Positions 39,645 to 62,279 of a DNA stretch of 64,000 nucleotides are shown here, piece after piece (positions within the stretch are counted from its first letter, which is position 1; every line of letters begins with the position of its first letter). Made by a program: the position numbers and the translations under genes. The notes under the pieces were generated by a model. It saw nothing but the letters and a program-made list of their open reading frames with translations. It made no database searches and was not told the origin of the DNA. Source of the DNA: Bradyrhizobium zhengyangense (lineage in GTDB: Bacteria > Pseudomonadota > Alphaproteobacteria > Rhizobiales > Xanthobacteraceae); NCBI RefSeq assembly GCF_022012435.1, contig NZ_JAKLUA010000009.1, forward strand, positions 1 to 64,000, in the 5' to 3' direction.

Positions 39645-40517
39645 GTGAATAGCTACTGGACGACGGGTATATCGCTTTTGATCGACGGCCTGTCCTTCGG
39701 GATGATCCTCTTTCTGATCTCCTCTGGCCTGACGATCACGCTCGGCGTGATGCGTCTTCTAAACATTGCACATTGTGGTTTCGCCATGATCGGCGGTTAC
39801 ACTGCACTCTCGCTCGTCAATCATTTTGGCCTGGGTTTGCTCGCCGCGCTTCCGATTGCTGTTGCAATCACGGCGATACTCGGGGCCATTCTTGAACGGA
39901 CCGTATATCGATGGATCTATGAGACGAGTGCTCTCGGTCAAATCCTGATGACAATTGGCCTCACATTCATAATGATCGCCTCGATCAACGCCGGTTATGG
40001 CTCGCTGACGCATACATTACCAACGCCTGAATTCCTGGCGGGAGCATGGCATTTTGAAGAGATATCGATTTCTGCTTACCGTAGCTTTCTTTCAATCGTC
40101 AGCCTGACAATCGCAGGCCTGATTTGGTACGTCATCGAACAGACCGATTTTGGCGCCCGCTTGCGCGCCTCCGTCGATAATCCGCGCATGGCTCGCTGTG
40201 TCGGGATCAATGTGCGGCGGGTGTTCGCTCAGACCTTCGTTGCTGGGTGCGCGTTAGCGGCCATAGCCGGCGTACTTGGAACGCAGATGCTGCCGCTGCA
40301 GCCATACTATGCCACGAACTATATGGTCATGGTTTTGATCGTCGTTGCGGTTGGCGGCTTTGGCAGTCTCAAAGGATCGCTTATCGCCGCGCTCGGCTAT
40401 AGCATCTTCGATACCTATTTTCGCTATCTCTTTCCGGCGGCCGGCGCTTTCGGCATCTACATTCTTCTGGCCCTCATTCTGTCCATTCGACCTTTTGGGC
40501 TTTATGGCCGTGCTTAA
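39645..40517 (+). CDS. livH: LivH-type ABC permease
   Basis: Inner-membrane permease of about 290 residues with eight or so hydrophobic segments. Typical LivH features: LLIDGLSFGMILFLISSGLT, ITLGVMRLLNIAHCGFAMIG and the cytoplasmic coupling segment RASVDNPRMARCVGINVRRV. I favour the GTG at 39645, four bases after a GAGGGA ribosome site; an in-frame TTG at 39633 adds four residues. Overlaps the LivM gene by 14 bases. The importer's solute is unknown; Liv paralogues often carry aromatic acids in related bacteria. Confidence 0.9.
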   Translation: MNSYWTTGISLLIDGLSFGMILFLISSGLTITLGVMRLLNIAHCGFAMIGGYTALSLVNHFGLGLLAALPIAVAITAILGAILERTVYRWIYETSALGQILMTIGLTFIMIASINAGYGSLTHTLPTPEFLAGAWHFEEISISAYRSFLSIVSLTIAGLIWYVIEQTDFGARLRASVDNPRMARCVGINVRRVFAQTFVAGCALAAIAGVLGTQMLPLQPYYATNYMVMVLIVVAVGGFGSLKGSLIAALGYSIFDTYFRYLFPAAGAFGIYILLALILSIRPFGLYGRA

Positions 40518-41523
40518 GGTAACTCCCTCAAAGGACACACCTAAACGGGACATCGCCGCGTCCTTTGGATCCCACCGCTTGGGACTTAGCGATGCGCTGG
40601 TGTGGGCGCTTGCAATTTTCGCTTATTTCTTCTTGGGCGCCTATCACCAGCTCGGCACCCAAGTCATCATCATGATCATCTTGGCTCTGTCGCTCGATCT
40701 CGCCATCGGTTACTCTGGAATCGAAAGTTTAGGTCATGCCGTCTTTTTTGGTATCGGAGCCTACGCCGCCGCCCTTTTTGCGCTCAATGTTTTATCTGAA
40801 CCCTTGACCGGCCTTGTGGTAGGAGGGCTAGCTGCCGGCGCGTTCGGCTTCGTCACGGGTTTGCTGGTTCTTCGTGTTCGCGGCTTGACTCAAGTCATCC
40901 TCACGATCGCCATTGGTGCCGTCGTCCTCCAAGTTGCGACAACCTGGAAATCAGTAACGGGCGGAGATGATGGCCTTGCGGGGTATCAGGTCGCACCCAT
41001 CTTGGGACGTTACTCGTTCGACCTCTATGGCCATACTGCCTATCTCTATTCGCTTTGCGTGCTGGCCTTCGTGTTTGCCCTTGCCCGGATCTTGGTAAAC
41101 TCGCCATTTGGATATGTTCTGCGTGGGATACGCGACAACGACCAACGCATGCGCATGCTAGGCGTACCGGTCGCCGCACGGTTGCTTCTCATCTATTCGA
41201 TTTCGGCAGCAATAGCGGGTGTGGCCGGTGCAATTTCCGCACAAGTCACCGGGCTTGTCGCAACCGACTCACTCTCATTCCTGCTATCCGGAAACGTCCT
41301 CATCATGTTGCTAATCGGCGGGATGGGGCGCCTGACCGGCGCATTCATTGGGGGCATTATTTTCGTCATTTTTTCTGATCGGGCCGCGGCGATAGACCCC
41401 TTCAATTGGTTGTTTATGCTGGGTGGACTCCTCATTCTCGCCGTCAGGTTTACACCTCAAGGCGTTGGTCCCTGGATTGATCGTATGGGTGGCTATCTCC
41501 TCGATCGCAGGCGGAAACCATGA
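40504..41523 (+). CDS. livM: LivM-type ABC permease
   Basis: Second permease of the Liv importer, about 339 residues from the ATG at 40504. An open frame extends upstream into livH but that part is out-of-frame shadow. Visible: IIMIILALSLDLAIGYSGIE, LGHAVFFGIGAYAAALFALN and the coupling loop LRGIRDNDQRMRMLGVPVAA. It overlaps livH by 14 and livG by 4 bases, so the four genes are one transcript. Confidence 0.92.
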   Translation: MAVLKVTPSKDTPKRDIAASFGSHRLGLSDALVWALAIFAYFFLGAYHQLGTQVIIMIILALSLDLAIGYSGIESLGHAVFFGIGAYAAALFALNVLSEPLTGLVVGGLAAGAFGFVTGLLVLRVRGLTQVILTIAIGAVVLQVATTWKSVTGGDDGLAGYQVAPILGRYSFDLYGHTAYLYSLCVLAFVFALARILVNSPFGYVLRGIRDNDQRMRMLGVPVAARLLLIYSISAAIAGVAGAISAQVTGLVATDSLSFLLSGNVLIMLLIGGMGRLTGAFIGGIIFVIFSDRAAAIDPFNWLFMLGGLLILAVRFTPQGVGPWIDRMGGYLLDRRRKP

Positions 41524-42275
41524 ATGATACGGTCCTCGAAATCGTCGGTCTGCACAAAAGCTTCGGTGCTCTCGCCGTCACGCGTAATATCAACTTCCGC
41601 CTTGAGATTGGTGCAAGACACGCTCTGATTGGTCCGAATGGCGCAGGAAAGACCACCCTTGTAAATCTCATCACGGGAGCGTTGGCTCCATCCTCTGGGT
41701 CGATCCGACTTGAAGGACGTGACATCACACGGTATTCGCCGCAACGCCGAGTCTCTCTGGGGCTCGCGCGAACGTTTCAAATAAACTCGCTATTCCCGTC
41801 CATGACGGTGGTCGAAAATATTGCCCTCGCGGTCGTTGCAAATATGCATATCGACGCAAAACTGTGGGGCGCGCTCAATAGGCGCAAGCAGGTTCTGATC
41901 GAACTCGAGCGGCTCCTAGACGTTTTTAACCTCAGTGGTTCGGCATGCCAATTGATTTCCAATCTCGCATATGGTCAACGGCGGCTCGTTGAGCTCGCGC
42001 TGGCGCTGGCTCTCAAGCCAAAGGTGCTCATTCTCGACGAACCTGCTGCTGGCTTGCCGAAAGAAGACAGCGGAAAACTTTCGGAATTGCTGCGGCGGTT
42101 GCCCGCCGACCTCGCAGTCATCGTCATCGAGCACGACATGCAGATCGTTTTTGGTTTCGCTGACCGTATCACGGTGTTGGCAGAGGGAAGCGTGCTGACG
42201 CAGGGAACCCCGTCCGAGATTCGAGCAGATGCTAAGGTACGAGAGGTTTACCTCGGACAGGCGCGCAATGACTGA
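41520..42275 (+). CDS. livG: LivG-type ABC ATPase
   Basis: ATPase of 251 residues. Walker A GPNGAGKTT, Q-loop in RTFQINSLFPSMT, signature LAYGQRRLVELALAL (the LivG form of LSGGQ), Walker B VLILDEPAAGLP, H-loop VIEHDMQIVF. The C-terminus GTPSEIRADAKVREVYLGQA is the characteristic LivG ending. Overlaps livM by 4 and livF by 8 bases. Confidence 0.94.
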   Translation: MNDTVLEIVGLHKSFGALAVTRNINFRLEIGARHALIGPNGAGKTTLVNLITGALAPSSGSIRLEGRDITRYSPQRRVSLGLARTFQINSLFPSMTVVENIALAVVANMHIDAKLWGALNRRKQVLIELERLLDVFNLSGSACQLISNLAYGQRRLVELALALALKPKVLILDEPAAGLPKEDSGKLSELLRRLPADLAVIVIEHDMQIVFGFADRITVLAEGSVLTQGTPSEIRADAKVREVYLGQARND

Positions 42276-42975
42276 TTTGCTGAGACTGGAAGCTGTCACC
42301 GCAGGATATGGCTATGGCGCCGCGGCTATTGAAAACGTGGCTCTTTCGCTCCCGAGAGGGTCGTCATTGGCCGTGTTGGGACGCAATGGTGTCGGCAAGA
42401 CGTCCCTGCTTGCGACCATTATGGGCCTAACGCAAATGGCCTCCGGCAAGATCACATTTGACGGCGGCGAGATCGGAGGCATCGATACCTACGAGCGGGC
42501 TCGCCTGGGCCTCGGTTACGTGCCTCAGGAACGAGAGATCTTTCCTTCCCTGACGGTAGAGGAAAACCTTTCCGTTGCAAGGGTTGATCGGGGAAAGTGG
42601 AACATTGAATCCGTGTTTGAGCTATTCCCCCGGCTTGCTGAGCGACGGCAGAACTTCGGAAATCATTTGTCGGGTGGAGAGCAGCAGATGCTGGCTGTCG
42701 GCCGAGCGCTCGTCAGCAATCCCGCTTTGCTTATTCTCGACGAGCCGTTCGAAGGATTGGCTCCGGTCATTGTTGACCAGCTTGTGGAAGCGCTCAAACG
42801 CATCAGAAAAGAAAGCGATATGACGTTTATCCTCGTAGAACACCATGTTGATCTAGCGCTGTCACTAACGGTCCAGGCCCTAATTCTGGATCGAGGCCAA
42901 GTGGTTTGGAACGGCAAAAGCAACGATCTGGCGGGCAATAAGTCCGTTCTATCGAGCCTCGTTGGCATCAGCTAG
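42268..42975 (+). CDS. livF: LivF-type ABC ATPase
   Basis: ATPase of about 235 residues from the ATG at 42268. Walker A GRNGVGKTS, Q-loop YVPQEREIFPSLT, signature LSGGEQQMLAVGRAL, Walker B LLILDEPFEGLAP, H-loop LVEHHVDLAL. The first 13 residues of a longer frame overlap livG and are not used. Last gene of the Liv operon; a hairpin follows the stop directly. Confidence 0.94.
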   Translation: MTDLLRLEAVTAGYGYGAAAIENVALSLPRGSSLAVLGRNGVGKTSLLATIMGLTQMASGKITFDGGEIGGIDTYERARLGLGYVPQEREIFPSLTVEENLSVARVDRGKWNIESVFELFPRLAERRQNFGNHLSGGEQQMLAVGRALVSNPALLILDEPFEGLAPVIVDQLVEALKRIRKESDMTFILVEHHVDLALSLTVQALILDRGQVVWNGKSNDLAGNKSVLSSLVGIS

Positions 42976-42992
42976 GGAGGTAGACGACCTCC
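42976..42992. terminator. Hairpin between convergent livF and SDR genes
   Basis: GGAGGT-AGACG-ACCTCC directly after the livF stop: six perfect pairs and a five-base loop. No T-run follows, so it would be a weak or factor-assisted terminator. Its place between convergent genes supports a role in ending transcripts. Confidence 0.45.
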
Positions 42993-43029
42993 GATTACAT
43001 ACCTACCGGCAACGATACCAGTGCCGAGG

Positions 43030-43809
43030 TTACGGTACGGGACAATTGCCTCCATCGACATTAATGGCTGTTCCCGTTACGAACGAGGCTAGGTCCGAGG
43101 CTAGAAAGCAGGCCACATTCGCAACCTCGGTCACAGTTCCAAGCCGACCGAGACGCACGCTCTTTCCTTTCTGCAAAACGAAGTCTTCGTAGCTCGCTTG
43201 CGGTGCGGTGGACCGGTGCATTCGTTTCCACTGGTCGGTTTCGATCGATCCAAGGCAGATGGCGTTGATAAGGACGTTATCCGGCGCGCATTCGTTAGCC
43301 AGCAGCTTCGTCATGGATAGGCCGGCCGCCCGGCTCAGCGCCGACGGAGCGGCGCCGGTACCGGCCTTTGCCGCAATGCTGAGAATATTGACAACTCGTC
43401 CCCAGCGTCTTGCTCGCATTCCAGAGAGGCAACGCTGAGTTAAGTAAAGTGCCCCTCCGACTTTCAGCATGAAATCGGACTGGAGTGCGTCCCACTCAAC
43501 TCCCGATATTGGCTCGTGGGCAGCGTTGCCTGCGTTGTTAACGAGGACGTCAACATGACTGAAGTCGGGGGAGAGCCTCGACCAGGCCTGGTCAATCTGC
43601 AATTTGTTTCCGAGATCACATGAGATTCCAATCACGCGCTGACCGGTTGTGCTACTTATCTGGTCGGCGGTATCACTCACTTGTTGTTTATCTCGGGCGA
43701 GAATTGCAACAGAAGCGCCGGCCTCGGCGAACGCCAGAGCTATCGCTCGGCCAATGCCTCGGCTTCCGCCCGTTACGATTGCGGTTCGGCTTTTCAGCGA
43801 AATCTGCAC
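43030..43809 (-). CDS. SDR-family protein with altered catalytic motif
   Basis: Short-chain dehydrogenase/reductase fold, 259 residues. Cofactor motif TGGSRGIGRAIAL, then VLVNNAG (NNAG), and C-terminal FVTGTAINVDGG are normal. Where YxxxK should be, the sequence is APSALSRAAGLSMTK: the Tyr is absent and the Lys is replaced by Arg. A subgroup with SVSRAAG-like sequence exists as far as I recall, so the change may be ancestral, not a defect. Located 72 bases downstream of the isocitrate-lyase/PEP-mutase gene in one minus-strand unit. Confidence 0.88.
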   Translation of the reverse strand: MQISLKSRTAIVTGGSRGIGRAIALAFAEAGASVAILARDKQQVSDTADQISSTTGQRVIGISCDLGNKLQIDQAWSRLSPDFSHVDVLVNNAGNAAHEPISGVEWDALQSDFMLKVGGALYLTQRCLSGMRARRWGRVVNILSIAAKAGTGAAPSALSRAAGLSMTKLLANECAPDNVLINAICLGSIETDQWKRMHRSTAPQASYEDFVLQKGKSVRLGRLGTVTEVANVACFLASDLASFVTGTAINVDGGNCPVP

Positions 43810-43881
43810 TAAACTATCCTTGCTTGCTCTAGCACCGAGATTTCCATCGCAGCAGTCCGAAAATGCGGAACCGCGGACGAG

Positions 43882-44829
43882 TTACGTGGCGGGCGCAGAG
43901 GCCTGGGACCGGGCAACTTTGTCGAGCGCCTGCCAGTCTCGAAGTCCGACCGCCTCAGCAAAGGCCGCGCGAGCCGCCGGAAAATCGGCCAGTGCCGGGA
44001 GAGGGGACCCGTCGGCCGTGGACAACAACAACCCTGCGAGCGCGCTCGCCATCGCTTCTGTGGTCCGCAGCATCAAATAACTCGGATAAGCGATAAGATC
44101 GTAGCCCATCACAAAGAGATCTTGTGCCCGCGGCAGTTGCGCTTTCCCATCTTCAGTTAGGGCAAGCAGCTGGTGTTTCCCCCGGAAGGCACTCCCAACC
44201 GTCACGAGATCGTCATGTGCTTTCAATCCTGGAATAAATACACCATCCGCGCCCGCGGCTAAGCTGCGCTCCGCTCGCTTTAGGGCGCCATCTAGGCCAA
44301 GCGTTGTTAAGGAGTCCGTGCGGGCGATAATCAACATGTCGCCTGAACTGCGGGCATCAACAGCTGCCCGAAGCTTTGTTTCGAATTCTGCCATCGCGAC
44401 AACAGCAGGAGCAGGATTATCGCCGGGTTGCTTGCTCGGGCGAGCCTGGTCCTCCAGGATCACGGCGCCAACACCAAGCGCCTCGTACGCGCGGATCATG
44501 CGAACAACGCTCTTGATGTCACCGTAGCCGTCATCGCCATCGGTGATGAAGGGTAGATCGGAGGCCGCCGCAATATCCTGAATACCGGCGACCATCTCGC
44601 CAAGCGCCGCAATGCCTAGGTCCGGCAACCCGTAACGGGCAGCAAGCATTGCCGACCCACCAATTGCAAACGCTTTGAACCCAGCCCGCCCTATCAGCCG
44701 GGCGGCAAAAGCATCTTGAGCAACCGGAAGGACGAGCGGTCGTCCGGCTTCCATGACCTTGCGCAGAGGAATACGAGCTTTCAAAAGACACCCAATGATG
44801 CGAGTACGGCAACGACGCGAGTCCGACAA
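43882..44829 (-). CDS. Isocitrate lyase/PEP mutase-family protein
   Basis: TIM-barrel enzyme of about 300 residues. Family blocks: FAIGGSAMLAARYGLPD, the metal-binding region FITDGDDGYGD, GAVILEDQARPSKQPGD and IIARTDSLTTLGLDGALKRA. The catalytic loop KKCGH/KRCGH of isocitrate and methylisocitrate lyases is replaced by PSKQPGD, so it is probably not a classical lyase; oxaloacetate decarboxylase or 2,3-dimethylmalate/PEP-type chemistry are alternatives. Near LeuCD-like hydratases, dicarboxylate cleavage is a plausible role. The exact start is uncertain. Confidence 0.85.
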   Translation of the reverse strand: MSDSRRCRTRIIGCLLKARIPLRKVMEAGRPLVLPVAQDAFAARLIGRAGFKAFAIGGSAMLAARYGLPDLGIAALGEMVAGIQDIAAASDLPFITDGDDGYGDIKSVVRMIRAYEALGVGAVILEDQARPSKQPGDNPAPAVVAMAEFETKLRAAVDARSSGDMLIIARTDSLTTLGLDGALKRAERSLAAGADGVFIPGLKAHDDLVTVGSAFRGKHQLLALTEDGKAQLPRAQDLFVMGYDLIAYPSYLMLRTTEAMASALAGLLLSTADGSPLPALADFPAARAAFAEAVGLRDWQALDKVARSQASAPAT

Positions 44830-46241: not shown

Positions 46242-46874
46242 TCAGGGAGAATGCCGAGGTTCAGGTCGCGCGTATAACCAGGGCTGGCACGCTCGGCTCT
46301 TCTGCTGGAAGTCCTCAATGTCGGCGACGAATCTTAGCGTTTGACCAATCTCGTCGAGGCCCTCTAGCAGCGTTGCGCGACGGGCAGTTGGAATGTTAAA
46401 AGCGATTGTCCTGTCGTTCGGTAATTCGATGGTGCAGCTTTCGAGATCCACCGACATCGTCGGATCGTTCGTGGTCGCCAGGTGGTGATGGATCTCATCA
46501 ACCTCTGCCTGCGGTAACGTGACGAGTAGCAGCCCGTTCTTGAACGAGTTTTCGTAAAAAATGTCGCCAAAGGTGGGTGCAATCACGCAGCGAATACCGA
46601 ACCGTACCAGGGCCCAAACCGCGAACTCGCGGGAGCTGCCACAACCAAAATTGGCTCCCGCAACAATAACTTTGCTCTTGCGAAAGGGGGCGCGGTTCAA
46701 GATAAAGTCCGGCACCTCTTGGCCTTGCAGATCATACCGCCAGATCGCAAACAGGCCTTCCCCCGGATTGCTCTTCAAGCTGCGTTGCCAAGCGACCGAA
46801 ATGATCGCGTCTGTATCGATGTTAGGGCGCGGGAAACTGGCCGCGACACCCTCGACACGTGTGTATTTCTCCAT
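46242..46874 (-). CDS. LeuD-like hydro-lyase small subunit (candidate maleate hydratase)
   Basis: A 210-residue swivel-domain subunit, intact. It starts MEKYTRVEGVAASFPRPNID (ATG at 46874; an upstream ATG extends into leuC). Active-site loop [18 protein letters not shown], then GDIFYENSFKNGLLLVTLPQ. Last gene of a five-gene minus-strand operon: hydroxylase/hydrolase fusion, FAH hydrolase, gentisate dioxygenase, LeuC-like, LeuD-like. In that context the LeuCD pair most plausibly hydrates maleate to D-malate after hydrolytic cleavage of maleylpyruvate. A second leuD copy at 33-34 kb is frameshifted. Confidence 0.9.
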   Translation of the reverse strand: MEKYTRVEGVAASFPRPNIDTDAIISVAWQRSLKSNPGEGLFAIWRYDLQGQEVPDFILNRAPFRKSKVIVAGANFGCGSSREFAVWALVRFGIRCVIAPTFGDIFYENSFKNGLLLVTLPQAEVDEIHHHLATTNDPTMSVDLESCTIELPNDRTIAFNIPTARRATLLEGLDEIGQTLRFVADIEDFQQKSRACQPWLYARPEPRHSP

Positions 46875-46891
46875 ACGAATTCTCCGGCGGC

Positions 46892-48301
46892 CTAGGTTAA
46901 GTACCTTCTGACGTCCGTTACCGCCCCGGCAATCGCAGCGGCGGCCACCGAGGCGGGACTGGCTAGGTGGGTGCGACTCTTTTGGCCTTGGCGCCCCTCG
47001 AAATTGCGGTTCGACGTAGAGATGCAACGCTTACCGGGTCCTACAAAGTCATCATTGATGGCGACGCACATGGAACATCCGGCCTCCCGCCACTCAAACC
47101 CAGCTTCCAGGAAGACTTTGTCGAGCCCCAGAGATTCAGCGGCATGTTTAACCTGCGCTGAGCCGGGTACCACAAGCGCGCGTACATGCGAAGCGACCTT
47201 GCGCCCCCGCACGACTTCGGCGGCAGCCTCTATATCGGAAAGGCGGCTGTTGGTGCATGAACCGATAAACGCCACGTCGACGGTGAGCCCTTCGAGAGAC
47301 TGACCGGCCTCAAGACCGAGATAAGTCAGCGAACGGTCCATTGCGGCGCGACGCGCAAGGTCGTTAACCGCCGCGGGATCAGGAATCGGATCGCTGACGC
47401 TGCCAACATCCTCGGGGGTCGTCCCCCAGGTGACCTGCGGGCCGATGCTCGTGCAATCAACATCGACCTCTCGATCGAAAACCGCTTCTGGGTCGGTCGG
47501 GAGCGAACGCCAGTAAGCCAATGACTGTTCCCACATTTCTCCCTTGGGCGAATAAGGCAGATCGTGGAGATATTCGAATGTGACGTCATCGGCAGCTATA
47601 AGTCCAGCTCTCGCACCGAACTCGATCGACATATTGCAGATGGTTTGGCGTTCTTCTATCGACAAAGACCGTATGACGCTGCCGGCATATTCCACAGCGT
47701 AGCCACGTCCCGCCGCAACGCCGATCTGACCAATCAATCTCAAAATGAGATCCTTGGCGTATACCCCTCGGTTGAGCTTGCCTTCGAAATTGATACGCAT
47801 GCGTTTCGGCCGCCGCTGGACGATTGTCTGGGTCGCGAGCACATGCTCCACCTCGCTGGTGCCAATGCCCCAAGCCCAACAACCAAGTCCTCCACACGTT
47901 GCCGTATGGCTGTCGCCGCATACCAGTGTTGTGCCGGGCAAGACGATGCCGAGCTCAGGTGCGATTACATGGACAATGCCTTGCCGAGGATCGTCAACAT
48001 CAATGAGTTCAATCTTATGAGCCTGACAATTTTCACGTAACAGCTGCACGAATTCCCGACCACCAGCGAACGTCTCTCCCGTACGACCTTTCGCCGTGGA
48101 AAGGATGTGATCGACAACAGCATAGGTCAGTTCGGGATTACGGGTCTTGCGGCCAGCACGCTTCAAGCCCTCGAAGGCGGCAGCCGATGTGCATTCATGA
48201 ACCATGTGCCGGTCCACATGAAGAAGAAACACGCCATCTTCAATCTCCCGGATAACATGCGACAGCCAGATCTTGTCGAACAGAGTTTCGCTGTTTGCCA
48301 T
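46892..48301 (-). CDS. LeuC-like hydro-lyase large subunit (candidate maleate hydratase)
   Basis: A 469-residue aconitase-superfamily protein starting MANSETLFDKIWLSHVIREI. The 4Fe-4S cysteines are in GSCTNSRLSD and GCSMCVAIN; other blocks are LVCGDSHTATCGGLGC, GTSEVEHVLATQT, and SRTHLASPASVAAAA at the end. It is 17 bases upstream of its LeuD partner. Maleate hydratase from other proteobacteria is a LeuCD-type heterodimer, which fits the gentisate context better than leucine synthesis. Closely similar in layout to the LeuC-like protein at 34-35.4 kb. Confidence 0.9.
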   Translation of the reverse strand: MANSETLFDKIWLSHVIREIEDGVFLLHVDRHMVHECTSAAAFEGLKRAGRKTRNPELTYAVVDHILSTAKGRTGETFAGGREFVQLLRENCQAHKIELIDVDDPRQGIVHVIAPELGIVLPGTTLVCGDSHTATCGGLGCWAWGIGTSEVEHVLATQTIVQRRPKRMRINFEGKLNRGVYAKDLILRLIGQIGVAAGRGYAVEYAGSVIRSLSIEERQTICNMSIEFGARAGLIAADDVTFEYLHDLPYSPKGEMWEQSLAYWRSLPTDPEAVFDREVDVDCTSIGPQVTWGTTPEDVGSVSDPIPDPAAVNDLARRAAMDRSLTYLGLEAGQSLEGLTVDVAFIGSCTNSRLSDIEAAAEVVRGRKVASHVRALVVPGSAQVKHAAESLGLDKVFLEAGFEWREAGCSMCVAINDDFVGPGKRCISTSNRNFEGRQGQKSRTHLASPASVAAAAIAGAVTDVRRYLT

Positions 48302-48617
48302 GGCGCTAATCGACTTGTCCCAAGGGGCTTGAATTCTCACGAGGTGAGCGAGCCGTACACGAGCTTTGGGAAGTTAAGAACCTCGGACATTGCCCAATAG
48401 GAGAAAATTGCAAACACCCCTTTTGCCCGGCTAGCAAATCGATGCTGTGCGTCAGATGCGCTTAAGTACTCGCGGTCCACGCAAAATAGAACGATCGGCC
48501 TGCATCAGGCCTGCGCTATCTACAAGAGCAACTTTCTGGAAACGCGGAGCGAGCCAACGGGTATTGCCTGCGCAAACAACTACGCCGGGCACAACGATTG
48601 CAAGAGGCGAAAGCTGC
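48302..48617. other. Gap inside the gentisate operon, no gene recognised
   Basis: About 316 bases between the dioxygenase stop and the LeuC-like start. One minus-strand frame (48452-48718) overlaps the dioxygenase end and has no similarity. The length is large for an operon gap and may hold an internal promoter or a processing site; none was identified. Confidence 0.35.
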
Positions 48618-49688
48618 CTATTGACGTCCGTTCGGATGATCTTCTTGGCGAGCCAAACCGAAAGGTTCCAATATAGGCTGATCGCTTGTCCGGAACAGAA
48701 TCGATTTCTCATACGCAATATATTCGCACCACGACCAAGCCGGCTCTGCGATCACATCGCGCTCTGACCATTCGTGCTTGACGCCATCGATAATGGTGGC
48801 ACCGCTTCCCTTCGCAACAACACAAAGACTACTCGATGTGCGTCGTCGTGCCTTCGAGTGGAAGCCTTTACGGAATCCGTTCACGTGACAGGCGATTGTC
48901 GGCATGACATGCCCACCCGTGATAGGATTTACGTATTCGTAAACGACACCCTCGTACGGGTCATCATCGTCGCGGTCCAGTCCGGCTTGTATCATTGCTT
49001 CGGCGGCAGCCCATTTGTACACCAACTGGGGCGAGGCCGGCGGTTGCGCGCGCGTCCGACCTTGTAGCATTCCGAGCGCGCCAATATCTTCGTAAGAGCC
49101 CACAGTATTGGTATAGGGTTCTAAGGATTTGCTAGGATGCATCTCGAAACAATCGGCTCGCATGTATGAAACGAATGGGGTATCGAGCGCATCGAACCAA
49201 ACCATTGGCTCCGTCCCGCCATTGTGCGCGTGACTATGCCAGCACCCTCCAGGCGTGAGCAAAAGATCAAGCTCGTGCATATCCGCGCGCGTGCCATCGA
49301 CGACCGTGAACGCACCACTTCCCGACAAGATGAAGCGCAGCGCTGAATAGGTGTGCCGGTGCGCCGGTGCGACTTCGCCAGGTAGGATCATCTGCAACGC
49401 GCCATTGAGCGTAGGCGTTGCTGCTGCGGACCGTGGCATCCCGGGATTCTCAAACAGAAGAATTCGGCGCTCAGTGCCCGGCCCGGCCAATGATGTCTTA
49501 ACAGCTTCCTCGAACTCAGCGTGCAAGTCGCGCCACCGCCATACATGGCCGCGCGCCTTGTAGCCCATCTCTTCGGCGACCCCGCTGGTATTCCAGATGG
49601 GAATGATACTCAGCCGCTTCATACGATCGGCCCGCTCGGCTGTGGGATCGGCATGTTTCGGATCTGGCTGAGCCGTGCTGTTCGACAT
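48618..49688 (-). CDS. Gentisate 1,2-dioxygenase
   Basis: Bicupin Fe(II) ring-cleaving dioxygenase (EC 1.13.11.4), 356 residues, opening gentisate to maleylpyruvate. First cupin: LPGEVAPAHRHTYSALRFIL (two iron His), SGSGAFTVVDGTR, LLTPGGCWHSHAHNGG (third His). WFDALDTPFV is a family signature. Second cupin: GVKHEWSERDVIAEPAWSWC. The ARMVLFENPG-like N-terminal segment is seen as ILLFENPG. It sits between an FAH-family hydrolase and the LeuC-like gene in one operon, consistent with gentisate catabolism by the hydrolytic maleylpyruvate route. Confidence 0.93.
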   Translation of the reverse strand: MSNSTAQPDPKHADPTAERADRMKRLSIIPIWNTSGVAEEMGYKARGHVWRWRDLHAEFEEAVKTSLAGPGTERRILLFENPGMPRSAAATPTLNGALQMILPGEVAPAHRHTYSALRFILSGSGAFTVVDGTRADMHELDLLLTPGGCWHSHAHNGGTEPMVWFDALDTPFVSYMRADCFEMHPSKSLEPYTNTVGSYEDIGALGMLQGRTRAQPPASPQLVYKWAAAEAMIQAGLDRDDDDPYEGVVYEYVNPITGGHVMPTIACHVNGFRKGFHSKARRRTSSSLCVVAKGSGATIIDGVKHEWSERDVIAEPAWSWCEYIAYEKSILFRTSDQPILEPFGLARQEDHPNGRQ

Positions 49689-49784: not shown

Positions 49785-50693
49785 CTAATTTTTGGCTATG
49801 CGCGGTGATCGGAGCATTTCGTCCGCCGACCAATCGCCGGCCTCGATCAGGAGCGTCATTTCGCCAATATCCTGTACGCCAACGACGACGCGGTCGCCCG
49901 GTACAATTTCGGATACTCCTTCGGGAGTGCCGCTCATGATGATGTCGCCGGGATGAAGTGTATAATAGGCGGACGCGAACGCGATCAGCTTGGGAACCGA
50001 CCATATGAGGTGTCGCGTATTCGATCGCTGCTTCTCCTTGCCGTTTATGCTCAGATAAAGGTCAAGAACCCCGGGATCGGGAATCTCATCTCGCGTAACC
50101 AACCAGGGTCCCAAGACGGAATAGGTGTCGATTGATTTCCGCAGGCTCCGCTCTTCGGGACCACGGACAACCGCGTCGACAGCAACGGCGTACCCAGCGA
50201 CATACTGCAAGGCGTCTGCCTGCGGGATGTTGCGACCCCGTCGACCTATAACAACACCCAACTCGGCTTCGGGGTCGTGCCTTCGCGTCGGATCGCCCAG
50301 TCTGATCAGCGATCCCGGGCCCACTAGCGAACTATTGGCCTTCAAAAAAAGACCGGCTCTGTCGATCGTCTGAACCTCCGATCGGCCCTGCCGCAATTCT
50401 TGATTGTTCGTCCCCTCGTCGAGATGGAGCTGATAGTTGACAGGGGCAGCGATGATCTTAGACGGATTAGCGACGGGGCTATCAAGCCGAACCGAGCTCA
50501 CGGGAATGCGTCGAGCGCGCCCGGCCAGCTCCTGTGCCTTGGCGATGACGCGGTCCAAATGCTCGATCATGATGTCGTGCTGCGGAAACGGCCACTTGAG
50601 GCTGGGCAGCACGTCCAGCGCCTCGGTAACGACGAGAATTTCGCCATCTCGCACGATACCAAGCTGATTTCCATCGAAACGACAGAGCCGCAT
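49785..50693 (-). CDS. FAH-family hydrolase, candidate maleylpyruvate hydrolase
   Basis: A 302-residue protein of the fumarylacetoacetate hydrolase family. Metal-binding Glu in HDPEAELGVVIG, the dyad region YAVAVDAVVRGPEERSLRKS, and GDIIMSGTPEGVSEI near the C-terminus. Next to gentisate dioxygenase, the expected reaction is hydrolysis of maleylpyruvate to maleate and pyruvate; fumarylpyruvate hydrolase after an isomerase is an alternative, but no maleylpyruvate isomerase is encoded nearby. Gaps of 96 and about 63 bases to its operon neighbours. Confidence 0.9.
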   Translation of the reverse strand: MRLCRFDGNQLGIVRDGEILVVTEALDVLPSLKWPFPQHDIMIEHLDRVIAKAQELAGRARRIPVSSVRLDSPVANPSKIIAAPVNYQLHLDEGTNNQELRQGRSEVQTIDRAGLFLKANSSLVGPGSLIRLGDPTRRHDPEAELGVVIGRRGRNIPQADALQYVAGYAVAVDAVVRGPEERSLRKSIDTYSVLGPWLVTRDEIPDPGVLDLYLSINGKEKQRSNTRHLIWSVPKLIAFASAYYTLHPGDIIMSGTPEGVSEIVPGDRVVVGVQDIGEMTLLIEAGDWSADEMLRSPRIAKN

Positions 50694-50756: not shown

Positions 50757-52868
50757 CTATGGCGTCGCCCCGACGTAAGTGTTGGAGTGGGCGTGGCGCC
50801 GAATCGCGCGAAAGAACTCGTCCGTCTCCGGCAGAAACTCGAACAGCGCAAAACTATGAATGCTATCGTCGAACAAGTGCAGTTCGGCATCTCCGCCCGC
50901 CGATTTAGCAGCAGCGACCAATGCACGAGCGTCGTCAGCGAGGGCTTCTCCACGCGCCGCAAAGACGCGCATCGGTGGTAGCCCGGCAAGATTTCCGCGA
51001 AGCGGCGAAATGGCGGGATCATCGGGCTCTCGGTCTTGGATGAACGCACCAGCCAAAGTCAGTAGTCGCCGCCGGGTCATCCAGGGCTCGGTTCGTCTAT
51101 TGCCGTCGATACTGGCCGCCGTCAGCGTGAGATCGGCAAAGGGCGACAGGAGATAAAGGGCGGCGGGCCGAGTGACATTCTCGTGACGGAGCTTTGCGGC
51201 GAGACTTAAAGCAAGACCACCGCCCGAGCATTCGCCACTGACTGCAACTGGGTCTGCGCGCCGCGAAAGCCACGCAAAGGCCGCTCGCACATCCTCCTGC
51301 ATTTGCATTGGCGTATGTTCCGGGACAAGTCGGAACTCGGGTACCAACGCCCAGCCACCGATCGCGCGCGCTAGACCAGCTGCAAGCAAAACCGAGCTCT
51401 TAGCCGAACCAAACACATATCCTCCCCCATGAAGATGAAGAACGGCAGGACCACTTTTCCCGCCGGGGGGAATGACGCATAACGCAGGCACCCCGTCGCA
51501 GTCGACGGTTTCTACCGACACATCCTCTGGCAACGCACATAGACTCGACATGAACCGCTCGTAAGCAGCCCGTTCGCTCATCCAGTCTTCATCTTCGAAC
51601 TTGAGAGCATTCGACCAAAGATCGAACGCGCGGGCGGCGGCCGGCCGCGACGGCCGCACCAATGGACTGGCGTTAAACAGGTCGAATGGCTTGTTTGATT
51701 CGGCGACTTCATCATAGCCATAGAGCCACGCAAACCGCTCATACCCAGCTTGGTCGAGCTTCAGCATGCCCCGCCCCATCCGTCCGTAAGCCGCCTGACG
51801 CTCGGGTGCCTTTTCATGAAATGCCGTAAGATCGCCGCGACTTTGGTGAAGCAACCGAGTGGTCCGCGGCTTCCGCCGCGCTTGAAACTCGGAAAAAGCG
51901 GCTTCCAAGTTGCTCCCGCTCCGGTGCAAACAAGCCGCCAACGCCACCGAATCTTCGAGCGCCATCGCCGCACCGGAGCCGGATGTCGGCAGCACCGGGT
52001 GGGCCGCGTCGCCAATCAGAACTATTCGCCCGCGATGCCATTCTGGCAGGGGATAACGATAATTGATCGCCGTGATGAAAGCTTCGGTTACAGCCTCAGT
52101 GATCTCTCGGACGTCTTTGCAGGCGTCCTTAAATGAGGCGCGCAAATCCGCGACATCCCCAGCTGTGGCCCAGTCCTCACGATGGATCTCATCGGCAGGT
52201 ACGTAGAAGGCTGCATAAAACTGTTTGCCGCGACGAATCGGATAGCAAACCACGTGGCGACCCGCACCGCTCCACACATTGGTATCCAATGTTAGCGCTT
52301 TGCTGAGAAGCGTCGTTGGTAGAACGGTCCGCCAGGCGAGGAGGCCCGTAGATATCGACTCGCTTTCTCCAAAAATTGCGCTTCGCACCTTGGAACGCAG
52401 GCCATCGGCTCCGATTAGGAGATCGCCAAGAACAGCCTCACCCCTCTCGAGAATGACGGTAACACTTCGATCATCTTGCTTCACATCGACAACAGAGCAG
52501 TTGAGCCGGATCTCCGTTCCGTCCAAATGTCTTGCAAGAGCGTCGATCAAATCGCGGCGATGCGTCTTGTAAAGCGGGGCGCCATACAGCTTGGCTCCCG
52601 CTTCGCCCAGTTGGGTGCGATTGCGTACCTCACCGCTCACCATATCATAAAATGTAATCGTCTCGGGCGGCTCATCCGAGCGCTTTATCTCCGCCGCAAT
52701 GCCCAGCGATTCAAGAACGCGCATAGCATGAGGTCCAAGGACAACACCTGCTCCAACCTCGCTTAACTCCGCCGCTCGCTCGATGACGGTCACGTCGATG
52801 CCGTTACGACGCAAAGCAACCGCCGTAGCCAGTCCGGCCACTCCGGCTCCGACAATCAGGGCACGCAT
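50757..52868 (-). CDS. FAD aromatic hydroxylase fused to HSL-type alpha/beta-hydrolase
   Basis: One uninterrupted 703-residue frame holds two enzymes. Residues 1 to about 390 are a class A flavin monooxygenase of the salicylate/3-hydroxybenzoate hydroxylase type: GAGVAGLATA near the start, LIGADGLRSKVR (DG motif), LIGDAAHPVLPTSGSGAAMA (GD motif). Residues from about 400 to the end are an HSL-family esterase: HGGGYVFGS oxyanion motif (H480), nucleophile elbow GECSGGG where GDSAGG is usual (Cys547 in the Ser place), and final His in SIHSFALF (H671). I choose the ATG at 52868, six bases after GGGAGG. Gentisate dioxygenase nearby suggests that it makes gentisate, perhaps after releasing a hydroxybenzoate from an ester. 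Confidence 0.85.
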   Translation of the reverse strand: MRALIVGAGVAGLATAVALRRNGIDVTVIERAAELSEVGAGVVLGPHAMRVLESLGIAAEIKRSDEPPETITFYDMVSGEVRNRTQLGEAGAKLYGAPLYKTHRRDLIDALARHLDGTEIRLNCSVVDVKQDDRSVTVILERGEAVLGDLLIGADGLRSKVRSAIFGESESISTGLLAWRTVLPTTLLSKALTLDTNVWSGAGRHVVCYPIRRGKQFYAAFYVPADEIHREDWATAGDVADLRASFKDACKDVREITEAVTEAFITAINYRYPLPEWHRGRIVLIGDAAHPVLPTSGSGAAMALEDSVALAACLHRSGSNLEAAFSEFQARRKPRTTRLLHQSRGDLTAFHEKAPERQAAYGRMGRGMLKLDQAGYERFAWLYGYDEVAESNKPFDLFNASPLVRPSRPAAARAFDLWSNALKFEDEDWMSERAAYERFMSSLCALPEDVSVETVDCDGVPALCVIPPGGKSGPAVLHLHGGGYVFGSAKSSVLLAAGLARAIGGWALVPEFRLVPEHTPMQMQEDVRAAFAWLSRRADPVAVSGECSGGGLALSLAAKLRHENVTRPAALYLLSPFADLTLTAASIDGNRRTEPWMTRRRLLTLAGAFIQDREPDDPAISPLRGNLAGLPPMRVFAARGEALADDARALVAAAKSAGGDAELHLFDDSIHSFALFEFLPETDEFFRAIRRHAHSNTYVGATP

Positions 52869-53363: not shown

Positions 53364-54107
53364 ATGGCTGGCCGTCTGGCTGGACGTCACATTTTGATCT
53401 CGGGCGGCGGAAGCGGAATCGGCCATGCCACCGCCATGCGATGCGCCGAGGAAGGAGCGGTGGTGACTGTTGTCGGACGGCGGCTCGATTGCTTGAAAGA
53501 GGTCGCCAGGTTGACGCGAGGACACGCTATTGCGGCGGATCTTACCGACGAGGCGCAAGCATTTGCCGCGGTGAACGACGCCGCGGCCCTTATGGGCTGT
53601 CTCGATGGTATCATCAATTGCGTCGGCAATGCCGAGGCCGCTGTTCTAGAAGATATCGACTTAGCTCGTTGGGACGCGAGTCTTCGCACCAACCTTACGT
53701 CTCACTACCTGGTCTGCAGAGCAGCATTGCCACATCTTCGAAAGACTCGAGCAGCAGCCATCGTCAACGTGTCGGCACTGGCAGGTATACGACCCGGTGT
53801 AAGCAGCGCGGCGTACGGAGCCGCAAAGGCCGGCGTCATCCAATTTACCAAGACACTTGCTGCCCAGTTGGCGCCCGATATACGAGTGAACTGCGTCTGC
53901 CCGGGGGCCGTCGATACTGAGATGATGGACCGATTTTTGGCCGGAAAGTCAGCCTCGCAACAAGACGCTTTTCTGGCGAGGTACGCGCTGAGGCGGCTGG
54001 CAATTCCCCTAGAAATAGCAAATCTCTTGCTGTTCCTGGTCAGTTCGGAGGCTCAGTACATCACAGGCAGCAACTATGTCTGCGACGGAGGTCGGGCCTA
54101 TCAGTGA
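53364..54107 (+). CDS. SDR-family oxidoreductase, canonical
   Basis: A 247-residue NAD(P)-dependent dehydrogenase/reductase with complete motifs: GGGSGIGHATAMRCAEEGA, IINCVGNAEAA (NNAG variant), catalytic Ser in VNVSALAG and YGAAK as YxxxK, and YITGSNYVCDGG at the end. It resembles 3-oxoacyl reductase or 2,3-dihydrodiol-type dehydrogenases; substrate unknown. Divergent from the hydroxylase fusion gene. Confidence 0.92.
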   Translation: MAGRLAGRHILISGGGSGIGHATAMRCAEEGAVVTVVGRRLDCLKEVARLTRGHAIAADLTDEAQAFAAVNDAAALMGCLDGIINCVGNAEAAVLEDIDLARWDASLRTNLTSHYLVCRAALPHLRKTRAAAIVNVSALAGIRPGVSSAAYGAAKAGVIQFTKTLAAQLAPDIRVNCVCPGAVDTEMMDRFLAGKSASQQDAFLARYALRRLAIPLEIANLLLFLVSSEAQYITGSNYVCDGGRAYQ

Positions 54108-59392: not shown

Positions 59393-59661
59393 GAGGAAAT
59401 CGATGCTTCCCGGCGTCGAATGCCCACTAAGCCCCGTTGCGCAGCCGGCGTTCGGGTTATTGCGAGGGCCTCTGAAGAATGAGTGGCATGCCCGCAGAGG
59501 GACGTTCCGGAGAGCAGCGCGCCCGGCCAATTCTCAAAAATGCAGGGCAGGGGCATGCCTCTTGGAAAGCCTCGGTCGCTGCCGAAACACCACCTCTAGC
59601 GCCGCAGCCCATTGACCGGTGCGGCCAGACGGTCTCCGGCGAGCAGTTCAATTCAGGAGGA

Positions 59662-61350
59662 ATGTCCGTGGAAACGATCGATACGCCCGTCTTGATAGTC
59701 GGCGGAGGGCCGGTCGGCTTGTCGCTTGCAATCGATCTCGGTTGGCGCGGTGTCGAAGCGCTGCTCATAGAGCAGGAGCGGCCGACGGCCCGGATGGTTC
59801 ATCCTCGCATGGACAATGTCGGCATTCGCACTATGGAATTCTGCCGACGCTGGGGAATTGTCGAGGCCATCGAAATGGCCGGGTTTCCTCGCGATCTGCC
59901 GGTCAGCATCGTCTATGCGACGGGGGTCCTCGGCCACGAACTGGCGCGCGATGTCTACCCTGATAAAGCGCACGCGGTCCCGCCACCGTTTAGCCCGCAA
60001 AAGCACGAGCTATGCCCTCAAAATTTTTTCGACCCCGTACTCCAGAACGCAGCTTCGAGCTACTCGACCAACCAGTTGCTGTATCAGCACCGCCTAGAGG
60101 AATTCGAGGACAAGGGCGACCACGTCATCGCTCACGTGCGCCCGCTGCTTGGTGGCGAACCACTATGCGTGCGTGCGCAGTACCTTGCCGCCTGCGATGG
60201 GGCAAGCAGCACAGTCGCACAGCGACTCTCGCTTGGTCCGACAAACAGCAAGGTATTGAGTTGTAGCACGAACATCTTCGTTCGGTGTCCGGCTCTGGCG
60301 CAGAAGACGCTCGCCCAACGGGCGTATCGGTACGTGTTAGTCGGGCCTGAGGGGGTTTGGGGAAGCTTCGTCAATATAGACGGGCGCGATACCTGGCGGC
60401 TTCAACTGCTCGGCGACGAGACCTGGCCCAATTGGAGCGAGGCGCAGATCAACACTTTTGTGCGACGAGGAATCGGAGCCGATGTTGACTACGAGGTGCT
60501 CTCTTGGTTGCCGTGGTCCCGTCGTGAGATCACTGCGCCGAAGTTCAGCTCCGGGCGCTGCTTCCTCGTCGGCGATTCGGCCCATCAGCTCTCTCCGACC
60601 GGCGGATACGGCATGAATACGGGCATTGCCGAGGCGGTTGATCTGTCATGGAAGATCGCAGCTGTGTTGGAGGGGTGGGGCGGCCCCACACTCCTGGAAA
60701 GCTACGACACAGAGCGGCGCCCGATCGCCATGCGCAACGTGTCGCAGGCGTCCGCGAACCTAGCCGCGATGCGCTCGGTTCCTCCAGAGCCGATGCTGCT
60801 CGACCAAGGCCCTGCGGGCGAGACGGCGCGGCGCGCAACAGGAGCCTATACCCAGCAGGCCATGCAGCGGGAATGGAGGTCGTTCGGAATTCATCTTGGG
60901 GCGGTCTATCGCAATTCGCCGATCGTCGTCGCTGAATCGTTCGAACGAGCCGAGCCCGATGTCGCGAACTTCGTGCAAGTAGCCGAGGCCGGCGGCCGCG
61001 CACCTCATGTTTGGCTCTCGCCGGGCCACTCCACGTTAGACTTATTCGGTCGTGGGTTCGTGCTGCTGGAGTTCGCATCGGAGGTGGGTGCTGCTGTGGG
61101 CGGTCTGACCCGTGCGGCGCACGCGGTTGGGCTGCCAATCCGTCATCAGCTCATCCCGGAGCCAAACACCATCGCCGTCTACGGGCGCCGCTACGCTTTG
61201 GTCCGCCCGGACGGACACATCAGCTGGATTGGGGACGCTATTCCTGAAGAGCCGGCGCGGCTCATTGATCGCATCCGCGGCGCGGGCGGCGTGCAGGGCA
61301 CGTCGGCATTAAGAACGCTTCCCTTGAGCATGGGCAGCGTGGCCTCATGA
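59662..61350 (+). CDS. FAD-dependent phenol-type monooxygenase (MhpA/PheA-like)
   Basis: A 562-residue flavoprotein hydroxylase from the ATG at 59662, preceded by AGGAGGA; the open frame further upstream is not coding. GGGPVGLSLAIDLGWRGV (FAD Rossmann motif), LAACDGASSTVAQRL (DG motif), FLVGDSAHQLSPTGGYGMNT (GD motif), and a C-terminal thioredoxin-like domain (LDLFGRGFVLLEFAS). It resembles 3-(3-hydroxyphenyl)propionate hydroxylases. The expected substrate is a phenolic acid, consistent with PadR control. It overlaps the next SDR gene by four bases. Confidence 0.92.
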   Translation: MSVETIDTPVLIVGGGPVGLSLAIDLGWRGVEALLIEQERPTARMVHPRMDNVGIRTMEFCRRWGIVEAIEMAGFPRDLPVSIVYATGVLGHELARDVYPDKAHAVPPPFSPQKHELCPQNFFDPVLQNAASSYSTNQLLYQHRLEEFEDKGDHVIAHVRPLLGGEPLCVRAQYLAACDGASSTVAQRLSLGPTNSKVLSCSTNIFVRCPALAQKTLAQRAYRYVLVGPEGVWGSFVNIDGRDTWRLQLLGDETWPNWSEAQINTFVRRGIGADVDYEVLSWLPWSRREITAPKFSSGRCFLVGDSAHQLSPTGGYGMNTGIAEAVDLSWKIAAVLEGWGGPTLLESYDTERRPIAMRNVSQASANLAAMRSVPPEPMLLDQGPAGETARRATGAYTQQAMQREWRSFGIHLGAVYRNSPIVVAESFERAEPDVANFVQVAEAGGRAPHVWLSPGHSTLDLFGRGFVLLEFASEVGAAVGGLTRAAHAVGLPIRHQLIPEPNTIAVYGRRYALVRPDGHISWIGDAIPEEPARLIDRIRGAGGVQGTSALRTLPLSMGSVAS

Positions 61351-62228
61351 GTCTGACCGGCAAAACCCTGTTCATTACCGGCGCAAGCCGAGGCATTGGG
61401 CTCGCCATTGCGCTGCGAGCCGCGCAAGACGGCGCCAACGTTGCAATTGCAGCCAAGACTGTCGAGGCGCACCGGCATCTTCCCGGCACGATCTATTCTG
61501 CCGCCGAAGCCATCGAGCGAGCTGGGGGCAGGGCGTTGCCGCTGGCCGTCGACGTCCGTGATGAATCCTCCGTCGAGGCCGGCGTTGCCCAAGCGGCAAA
61601 GACGTTCGGCGGCATCGACATTTGCATCAATAATGCATCAGCGATCCATCTGGCCGGCACCCTACAAACGGATATCCGGCGCTTCGACTTGATGGCTCAA
61701 GTCAACGCACGCGGGACCTTCATCACTACCAAGGCATGCCTTCCGCACCTGATGAAGGCAGCTAATCCGCATGTCTTGATGATATCTCCGCCGCTTGACA
61801 TGACGCCCAAGTGGTTCGCGCCGCACACCGCCTACACCATGGCGAAGTTCGGCATGAGCATGTGCGTGCTCGGCATGAGCGCGGAATTTGCCGATCGCGG
61901 TATTGCTGTCAATGCTCTCTGGCCCCGAACCGCCATTGCGACGGCTGCCATCCAATTTGCATTGCTCGGAGAGAACGGAATGCGTCATTGCCGCAAGCCG
62001 GAGAGCATGGCCGACGCAGCCCATGCCATCCTCTCAAAGCCTGCGCGCGCCTTCACGGGCAACTTTCTGATTGACGACACGGTGCTCTATGACGAGGGGG
62101 TGCGCGAGTTTACGCATTATAGCGTGGATCCGGCGCTGCCTTTGATGGGAGACATGTTCGTTCCGGGCGACTTGCCGGCCCCACCCGGCGTGCAGATCAG
62201 CTCCGCTATCGATACCGCACGGAGCTAA
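61347..62228 (+). CDS. HSDL2-like SDR oxidoreductase
   Basis: A 293-residue SDR resembling the bacterial relatives of hydroxysteroid dehydrogenase-like protein 2. TGASRGIGLAIALRAAQDGA, AAKTVEAHRHLPGTIYSAAE (typical of this branch), ICINNASAI, and catalytic YTMAKFGMS (YxxxK). Its start overlaps the monooxygenase stop by four bases; the oxidoreductase gene follows after 51 bases. It could reduce or oxidise a carbonyl in the same phenolic acid route. Confidence 0.9.
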   Translation: MSLTGKTLFITGASRGIGLAIALRAAQDGANVAIAAKTVEAHRHLPGTIYSAAEAIERAGGRALPLAVDVRDESSVEAGVAQAAKTFGGIDICINNASAIHLAGTLQTDIRRFDLMAQVNARGTFITTKACLPHLMKAANPHVLMISPPLDMTPKWFAPHTAYTMAKFGMSMCVLGMSAEFADRGIAVNALWPRTAIATAAIQFALLGENGMRHCRKPESMADAAHAILSKPARAFTGNFLIDDTVLYDEGVREFTHYSVDPALPLMGDMFVPGDLPAPPGVQISSAIDTARS

Positions 62229-62279
62229 TGCCGGCGTGCCGGAAAGTCTTTTGCGCCAGCGCATCCAATGGAGTTGCGA

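What the first reader, a model, noticed from the sequence alone, without database searches (positions are those of the whole stretch)
50757..52868. Aromatic hydroxylase fused to an esterase with Cys in place of the nucleophile Ser
One frame joins a flavin hydroxylase and an HSL-type hydrolase. The elbow reads GECSGG instead of GDSAGG, so the nucleophile position is Cys followed by Ser. The fusion suggests channelled ester hydrolysis then ring hydroxylation, for example of a plant-derived hydroxybenzoate or salicylate ester, delivering gentisate to the next enzymes.
Basis: partly seen in the sequence, partly recalled or inferred. Interest (0 to 1): 0.7.

Follow-up and report, generated by a model that had tools for sequence, protein, structure and literature searches.

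The report
Flavin hydroxylase fused to degenerate hydrolase
A real two-part enzyme gene on a peanut-rhizobium plasmid joins an aromatic-ring hydroxylase to an esterase-like domain that has lost its usual catalytic serine, so it is probably a hydroxylase carrying a disabled or repurposed esterase rather than an ester-splitting assembly line.

Summary
Window 50757-52868 (minus strand) is one open frame: an FAD_binding_3 hydroxylase joined to an HSL-type Abhydrolase_3 domain, with Cys555 at the nucleophile elbow (GECSGG). It is not an artefact: 24 kb around it is 100.0% identical on seven ~980-kb peanut Bradyrhizobium plasmids.
The fusion is a recurrent family, most likely of one origin. In 38 of 38 other fused proteins outside the window's own lineage the nucleophile is Ser. 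The closest non-identical relative (57%, partly shared gene cluster) has Gly there. That pair's hydrolase domain diverges 1.65 times as far as its hydroxylase domain, against 1.01 ± 0.13 elsewhere. HGGG, the Glu of EXL and the His of HXF remain in both.
Best reading: an aromatic hydroxylase in a gentisate-type operon, carrying a folded hydrolase domain that has lost ordinary serine-esterase chemistry. A true Cys hydrolase in the window is not excluded (about 0.2). Unexpectedly, the Ser-bearing relatives lack the hydroxylase His213 that the window lineage keeps.

The parts
50757..52868 (-). Fused flavin hydroxylase / HSL-type hydrolase gene (703 aa from Met9; open to 52892 = 711 aa)
51693..52868 (-). 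Hydroxylase domain (residues 9-400)
   Evidence: FAD_binding_3; model matches TrlE 8rqh Z 52.9 and 3HB6H 4bk3 Z 47.8
52254..52256 (-). His213 codon, aligned with the active-site His213 of 3-hydroxybenzoate 6-hydroxylase
   Evidence: active-site label from passages of PMC5472690
52242..52244 (-). Tyr217 codon, aligned with the active-site Tyr217 of 3-hydroxybenzoate 6-hydroxylase
50757..51656 (-). HSL-type alpha/beta-hydrolase domain (residues 413-711, plus stop)
   Evidence: Abhydrolase_3; model matches EstD11 7at0 and E40 4xvc, Z 37.8 each
51420..51431 (-). HGGG oxyanion-hole motif (488-491)
51228..51230 (-). Cys555 codon (TGC) at the nucleophile position
50946..50948 (-). Glu649 of the EXL motif (acid of the triad)
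   Evidence: motif definition from passages of PMC10385968
50856..50858 (-). His679 of the HXF motif (base of the triad)
49785..50693 (-). FAH-family hydrolase, likely ring-cleavage product (acylpyruvate) hydrolase
   Evidence: FAA_hydrolase 174.1 bits; substrate inferred
48618..49688 (-). Gentisate-1,2-dioxygenase-family cupin protein
   Evidence: TIGR02272 252.1 bits, below its cut-off of 442.1; Cupin_2; HRH at residue 110
46892..48340 (-). LeuC-like hydratase large subunit (possible maleate hydratase: inference)
   Evidence: NF009116 713.2 bits, cut-off 531
46242..47027 (-). LeuD-like hydratase small subunit
   Evidence: NF002458 219.1 bits, cut-off 167
53364..54107 (+). Divergent SDR; homologue (62%) near the fusion in the L118 genome
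54341..55369 (-). Second FAH-family protein; homologue (74%) near the fusion in the L118 genome
55756..56760 (-). IclR-family regulator; homologue (67%) near the fusion in the L118 genome

Best explanation
The gene encodes a class A flavin hydroxylase that makes a gentisate-type (para-dihydroxylated) substrate for the dioxygenase and FAH hydrolase encoded next to it. Its C-terminal HSL-type domain descends from a Ser esterase fused once, long ago. In this lineage that domain has lost the Ser nucleophile (Cys here, Gly in the closest non-identical relative) and now most likely serves as a folded structural or ligand-binding part with little or no esterase turnover. Shown by sequence: the fusion, a single origin supported by two trees, the nucleophile change in both lineage members, and faster hydrolase divergence. 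Inferred: the reaction, the loss of turnover and the remaining role.
For: Single origin: the 23 fused hydrolase domains form one clade against 28 unfused HSLs (SH-aLRT 99). In the hydroxylase tree the 24 fused rows also group (SH-aLRT 94), together with L042, whose frame is cut by its contig end. Nucleophile: Ser in 38 of 38 other fused rows, Cys in the window, Gly in L118. Around L118, within about 11 kb, lie IclR, SDR and FAH homologues, and a gentisate-dioxygenase-like gene lies divergently beside the fusion. Divergence: hydrolase/hydroxylase path ratio 1.65 for window-L118, against mean 1.01 (sd 0.13) over 537 other pairs, none as high. Ser to Cys in hydrolase triads generally breaks activity, and CALB S105C is described as essentially inactive (PMC6642262, abstract and introduction). 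The hydroxylase keeps His213 and Tyr217.
Against: The window and L118 both keep HGGG, the Glu of EXL and the His of HXF, which an abandoned site need not keep. Cys is a competent nucleophile in some alpha/beta hydrolases (recalled; also stated in passages of PMC10385968). The lineage is known from only two different sequences, and L118 rests on one unnamed draft assembly. The 537 pairs are not independent, and the hydroxylase may simply be more constrained in this lineage; by raw identity the window pair is at the edge of the range of other pairs, not outside it. The gentisate-dioxygenase and 3HB6H matches score below their equivalog cut-offs, so substrates may differ from gentisate and 3-hydroxybenzoate.
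Confidence: 0.6

Rival explanations
1. Active cysteine hydrolase: Cys555-His679-Glu649 form a working thiol triad for a special substrate such as a lactone, thioester or activated ester made by, or fed to, the hydroxylase.
For: Cys sits at the elbow, while the oxyanion motif, acid and base are kept. TCC (Ser, 17 of 38 others) to TGC (Cys) is one base change. Evolved cysteine lipases exist (PMC6642262, abstract).
Against: The closest non-identical relative has Gly at that site, so the lineage does not require a nucleophile. The hydrolase domain diverges faster. Simple Ser-to-Cys exchanges usually abolish activity. No dienelactone hydrolase family was among the 15 Pfam families listed at E 0.01.
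Confidence: 0.2
2. One reading: classical ester hydrolysis followed by channelled ring hydroxylation, giving gentisate.
For: Fused domains, and gentisate-type genes downstream. The Ser-bearing relatives keep a complete esterase triad where their sequence covers it. In L104 separate hydrolase and hydroxylase frames lie near a dioxygenase homologue (34%) and a FAH homologue (32%).
Against: No Ser nucleophile in the window or in L118. No dioxygenase homologue in 28 of 28 loci around the other fused genes; one of them (L146) has a FAH homologue at 31% about 5 kb away. Their recurrent neighbours are an ABC solute-binding protein, a TetR regulator and an AMP-binding ligase. Nothing points to a particular ester.
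Confidence: 0.08
3. Non-covalent catalysis: His679-Glu649 act as general base without a nucleophile, in the manner of hydroxynitrile lyases or cofactor-free dioxygenases of this fold (recalled), so Cys and Gly are both tolerated.
For: His, Glu and HGGG are kept in both lineage members although the nucleophile varies.
Against: The analogy is recalled and was not tested; no substrate is indicated; the domain's best solved matches are esterases.
Confidence: 0.12

Closest known systems
3-hydroxybenzoate 6-hydroxylase (3HB6H, Rhodococcus jostii RHA1, PDB 4BJY) and related class A flavin hydroxylases (TrlE 8RQH, GsMNX1 8R2T, NicC 8UIQ)
   Same: Fold (Z 47-53), FAD domain, and His213 and Tyr217 of 3HB6H; the gene lies in a gentisate-type operon
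   Different: About 30% identity; below the NCBIfam equivalog cut-off (254.8 against 459 bits); carries a C-terminal hydrolase domain; in each of the 60 solved chains shown, the best matching stretch lies in one of the two domains only
Bacterial hormone-sensitive-lipase (family IV) esterases EstD11 and E40
   Same: Whole domain fold (Z 37.8, 287-292 residues), HGGG, EXL and HXF motifs
   Different: The nucleophile is Cys instead of Ser (Gly in the sister), and the domain is fused behind a flavin hydroxylase
Ser-bearing fused relatives in Bradyrhizobium, Afipia, Alloalcanivorax, Patulibacter and others
   Same: Same domain order and alignable linker; one fusion origin
   Different: Ser nucleophile intact; hydroxylase His213 replaced by Thr, Asn, Met or Ser in all 38; different neighbours
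Artificial cysteine lipase (CALB S105C plus four changes, PMC6642262)
   Same: Cys-His-acid triad on an alpha/beta-hydrolase fold
   Different: Engineered; the single Ser-to-Cys change alone was essentially inactive

Membership tests
Bacterial HSL / family IV esterase | Abhydrolase_3 domain above Pfam's cut-off | tested here: met
   127.8 bits against 25
Bacterial HSL / family IV esterase | HGGG oxyanion motif | tested here: met
   residues 488-491
Bacterial HSL / family IV esterase | GXSXG nucleophile Ser | tested here: not met
   GECSG; Cys at the Ser position
Bacterial HSL / family IV esterase | (E/D)XL acid and HXF base | tested here: met
   EAL 649-651 and HSF 679-681 (motifs from passages)
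Bacterial HSL / family IV esterase | NCBIfam GESAG subfamily score | tested here: not met
   171.9 bits against a cut-off of 430
Bacterial HSL / family IV esterase | Esterase activity | not testable with these tools
   needs an assay
3-hydroxybenzoate 6-hydroxylase | NCBIfam equivalog NF006021 score | tested here: not met
   254.8 bits against 459, though the best of all models listed
3-hydroxybenzoate 6-hydroxylase | Active-site His213 and Tyr217 | tested here: met
   both present, but His is also in 67 of 73 rows of hydroxylase-only frames, so it is not specific
3-hydroxybenzoate 6-hydroxylase | Converts 3-hydroxybenzoate to gentisate | not testable with these tools
   needs an assay
Dienelactone hydrolase (natural Cys hydrolase) | Match to its Pfam family | tested here: not met
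   not among the 15 families listed at E <= 0.01
Gentisate pathway operon | Gentisate 1,2-dioxygenase equivalog TIGR02272 score | tested here: not met
   best model, 252.1 bits against 442.1; a family member, but the substrate is open

The most novel reading that the evidence does not exclude
One ancestral two-domain enzyme split in opposite directions. Most descendants keep the esterase triad but lost the hydroxylase's active-site His213; the window lineage keeps His213 but lost the esterase Ser. If so, each lineage retained one half-reaction and reuses the other domain for something else. In the window this could be a natural Ser-to-Cys exchange with thiol chemistry.
Probability: 0.2. Interest if true: 0.65.

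Novelty: new variant of a known kind. Interest (0 to 1): 0.42.

Why it matters
It is a natural test of what happens to a fused enzyme pair when one partner loses its key residue. It offers a family with Ser, Cys and Gly at one nucleophile position, on which to ask whether a fused pseudo-hydrolase still helps its hydroxylase. It also warns against reading the protein as an esterase: its annotated name refers to the hydrolase domain only. The gene lies on a plasmid of peanut nodule bacteria, so its aromatic substrate may be plant-derived (inference).

Tried and rejected
Sequencing error or artefactual fusion: rejected. Independent fusion in the window lineage: disfavoured by the hydrolase tree and by the hydroxylase tree, which has long branches that limit certainty. 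Shift of the nucleophile to Ser556: considered and not favoured, because residue 555 is at the strand-helix turn and position 556 is Ala in 21 of 38 relatives. His213 as proof of gentisate formation: rejected, since 67 of 73 hydroxylase-only rows also carry His; of the six exceptions one, L042, is a fused copy cut by its contig end.

Searches for more of the window lineage: genome-contig scan with the window protein, no relative; genome-contig scan with alignment A1, whose patterns came from the main clade and say little about the window lineage; order, 2 of 397 genomes, being the window's own and G138, which is main-clade; class, 1 of 376, its own; 21 genomes of the genus with the L118 protein at E 1e-150, 1 of 21, itself; an order centred on G1024, 0 of 381, without a positive control; viral contigs, none. 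L104 (Ramlibacter lithotrophicus) looked nearly full-length, but its two domains are on separate frames. Coordinates of the structure model were not among the files I could read, so no Cys-His distance was measured. Literature: searches listed no report of this fusion; both were narrow, and the library holds open-licence papers only. The second structure job was not used.

Full report
Observation. Pfam recognises FAD_binding_3 at residues 10-349 and Abhydrolase_3 at 484-682, both far above their cut-offs. The elbow is GECSGG with TGC at 51228-51230. Against esterase E40, Cys555 aligns with the Ser of GDSAGG. An AlphaFold2 model (mean pLDDT 86.6, pTM 0.81) places residue 555 between a strand (549-554) and a helix (556-570). 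Residues from 413 or 415 to 706 match EstD11 and E40 (Z 37.8 each, 2.0-2.1 A), and the N-terminal part matches class A flavin hydroxylases (TrlE Z 52.9; 3HB6H Z 47.1-47.8).

Where it lies. The 24 kb at 40001-64000 is 100.0% identical on 7 of 7 matching plasmid records, all about 980-kb mobilizable Bradyrhizobium plasmids from peanut. Passages of PMC7324677 describe a symbiotic plasmid with identical sequence in 'Type II' peanut bradyrhizobia, strain CCBAU 53363 among them; that it is this plasmid is my inference from the strain name. The match argues against an assembly error, but the copies count as one observation of the sequence.

A recurrent fusion. Full-length fused homologues were found in 11 of 296 genomes drawn from the family, the window's own included, and in 27 of 265 genomes of the genus; of those 27, the window's own and six others carry the identical protein. 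They were also found in named records including Alloalcanivorax venustensis, Bradyrhizobium sp. C9, Afipia, Enterovirga and Ramlibacter MAGs, and the actinobacterium Patulibacter medicamentivorans, and on a Paraburkholderia plasmid, where the frame is broken into two pieces. After removing copies with the same last 250 residues, 40 of 71 fused rows remained: the window, L118 and 38 others, some of them close to each other. A hydrolase-domain tree used 23 of the 40 fused and 28 of the 40 hydrolase-only rows, and the fused ones form one clade (SH-aLRT 99). A hydroxylase tree used 24 of the 40 fused and 35 of the 76 hydroxylase-only rows. There the fused rows also group (94), together with L042, which is cut by its contig end, and window+L118 form a deep branch (100). 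Both were quick trees without bootstrap, and the hydroxylase tree has long branches.

The nucleophile. All 38 other fused rows have Ser at the Cys555 position. The window has Cys, and L118, the closest non-identical relative found (57% over the full length), has Gly in AEGSG. HGGG, Glu649 and His679 are kept in the window and L118. In the 38 others Gly491 is Ala in 3, and Glu649 and His679 are kept in 37 of the 37 rows with letters there; the broken Paraburkholderia row has none. Codons at the site are TCN in the 38, TGC in the window and GGG in L118. The motif roles (GXSXG, (E/D)XL, HXF) come from passages of PMC10385968. L118 comes from a single unnamed draft genome.

Divergence of the two domains. 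On one fixed topology with 39 of the 40 rows (the broken Paraburkholderia row dropped), the window-L118 path is 0.79 for the hydroxylase and 1.31 for the hydrolase, ratio 1.65. Over 537 pairs of the other rows with hydroxylase path above 0.3, the mean ratio is 1.01 (sd 0.13, highest 1.56). The pairs are not independent, so this is an indication and not a test with a probability. Raw identities point the same way, 61.9% against 52.5%; among 169 other pairs at 60-65% hydroxylase identity the difference averages +0.8 points but reaches -9.7, so by raw identity the window pair (-9.4) is at the edge of the range and not outside it. The domain is still recognisably constrained, since it folds well in prediction and keeps the other active-site motifs.

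The hydroxylase. His213 and Tyr217, named as active-site residues of 3HB6H in passages of PMC5472690, are at the same numbers here. His is also present in 67 of 73 hydroxylase-only rows, one of the six exceptions being the cut fused copy L042, so it marks the ordinary state. The surprise is that all 38 Ser-bearing fused relatives lack it (Thr 32, Asn 3, Met 2, Ser 1). The two lineages thus show opposite losses: esterase Ser lost with hydroxylase His kept, or the reverse. Whether the relatives' hydroxylase is impaired or has changed substrate is unknown.

The operon. Behind the fusion, on the same strand, lie a FAH-family hydrolase (63 bases away), a gentisate-dioxygenase-family protein (96 bases further) and LeuC/LeuD-like hydratase subunits (277 bases further). 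My inference is hydroxylation, ring cleavage, hydrolysis to a maleate-type acid and pyruvate, then hydration. A LeuCD-like maleate hydratase in a gentisate pathway is recalled, not retrieved. The dioxygenase and hydroxylase score below their equivalog cut-offs, so alkyl- or amino-substituted substrates remain possible. Around L118 there are homologues of the window's IclR (67%), second FAH (74%) and SDR (62%) within about 11 kb, a partial match (48%) to the gene annotated as an indolepyruvate oxidoreductase, and a gentisate-dioxygenase-like gene (36% to the window's) divergently beside the fusion.

The other fused genes. No homologue of the window's dioxygenase was found (tblastn, E 1e-4) in 28 of 28 loci around the other fused genes (21 of the 22, 7), which run from 4.3 to 26 kb, some cut by contig ends; one of them (L146) has a FAH homologue at 31% about 5 kb away. 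In the 22 loci clustered (21 with a fused or cut fused gene, and L104) an ABC solute-binding protein family occurs in 13, a TetR family in 12 and an AMP-binding ligase family in 8; representatives were confirmed with Pfam or NCBIfam. In L104, where hydrolase and hydroxylase are on separate frames, a dioxygenase homologue (34%) and a FAH homologue (32%) lie nearby. This is the one locus seen that supports a link between a Ser hydrolase, a hydroxylase and gentisate-type genes, and it is unfused.

Judgement. The gene is real and the Cys is real. A Cys alone could suggest a thiol hydrolase, but a Gly in the nearest relative, the faster divergence and the known penalty of Ser-to-Cys exchange (PMC6642262, abstract and introduction) make a degenerate or repurposed hydrolase domain more likely. 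The retained His, Glu and HGGG keep a Cys hydrolase (0.2) or nucleophile-free catalysis (0.12) open. Two different sequences are a thin basis, and no activity has been measured.

Noticed in passing
38 fused loci other than the window and L118, column of window residue 213: All 38 Ser-bearing fused hydroxylases lack His213, which the window lineage and 67 of 73 hydroxylase-only rows keep.
   Followed up: partly
L104:8001-14217: Ramlibacter lithotrophicus has an HSL-type hydrolase frame and a hydroxylase frame, unfused, near a gentisate-dioxygenase homologue (12569-13561) and a FAH homologue (13612-14211).
   Followed up: no
59479-63998: A second FAD_binding_3 hydroxylase with Rng_hyd_C, an SDR, and the start of a gene annotated on the identical plasmid as indolepyruvate ferredoxin oxidoreductase family (no Pfam match in the part inside the window); a homologue of the last lies beside the fusion in the L118 genome.
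   Followed up: no
34017-44829: A second LeuC-like gene, a HpcH-type aldolase, a PEP-mutase/isocitrate-lyase-family gene and a branched-chain-type ABC transporter: together they look like a dicarboxylate-processing catabolic set.
   Followed up: no
1-24000: The identical plasmid records carry kynureninase, an amino acid aminotransferase and a CaiB/BaiF CoA-transferase under this stretch, hinting at tryptophan-related catabolism nearby.
   Followed up: no
beyond the window end; L110:3672-4997: On the identical plasmid p53363 a carotenoid-oxygenase-family gene lies near the cluster; this family includes stilbene-cleaving enzymes, and peanut makes stilbenes (both recalled).
   Followed up: no
L111:11938-14064: The Paraburkholderia sp. 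PGU19 plasmid copy of the fusion is broken into two frames and has no gene in the table shown.
   Followed up: no
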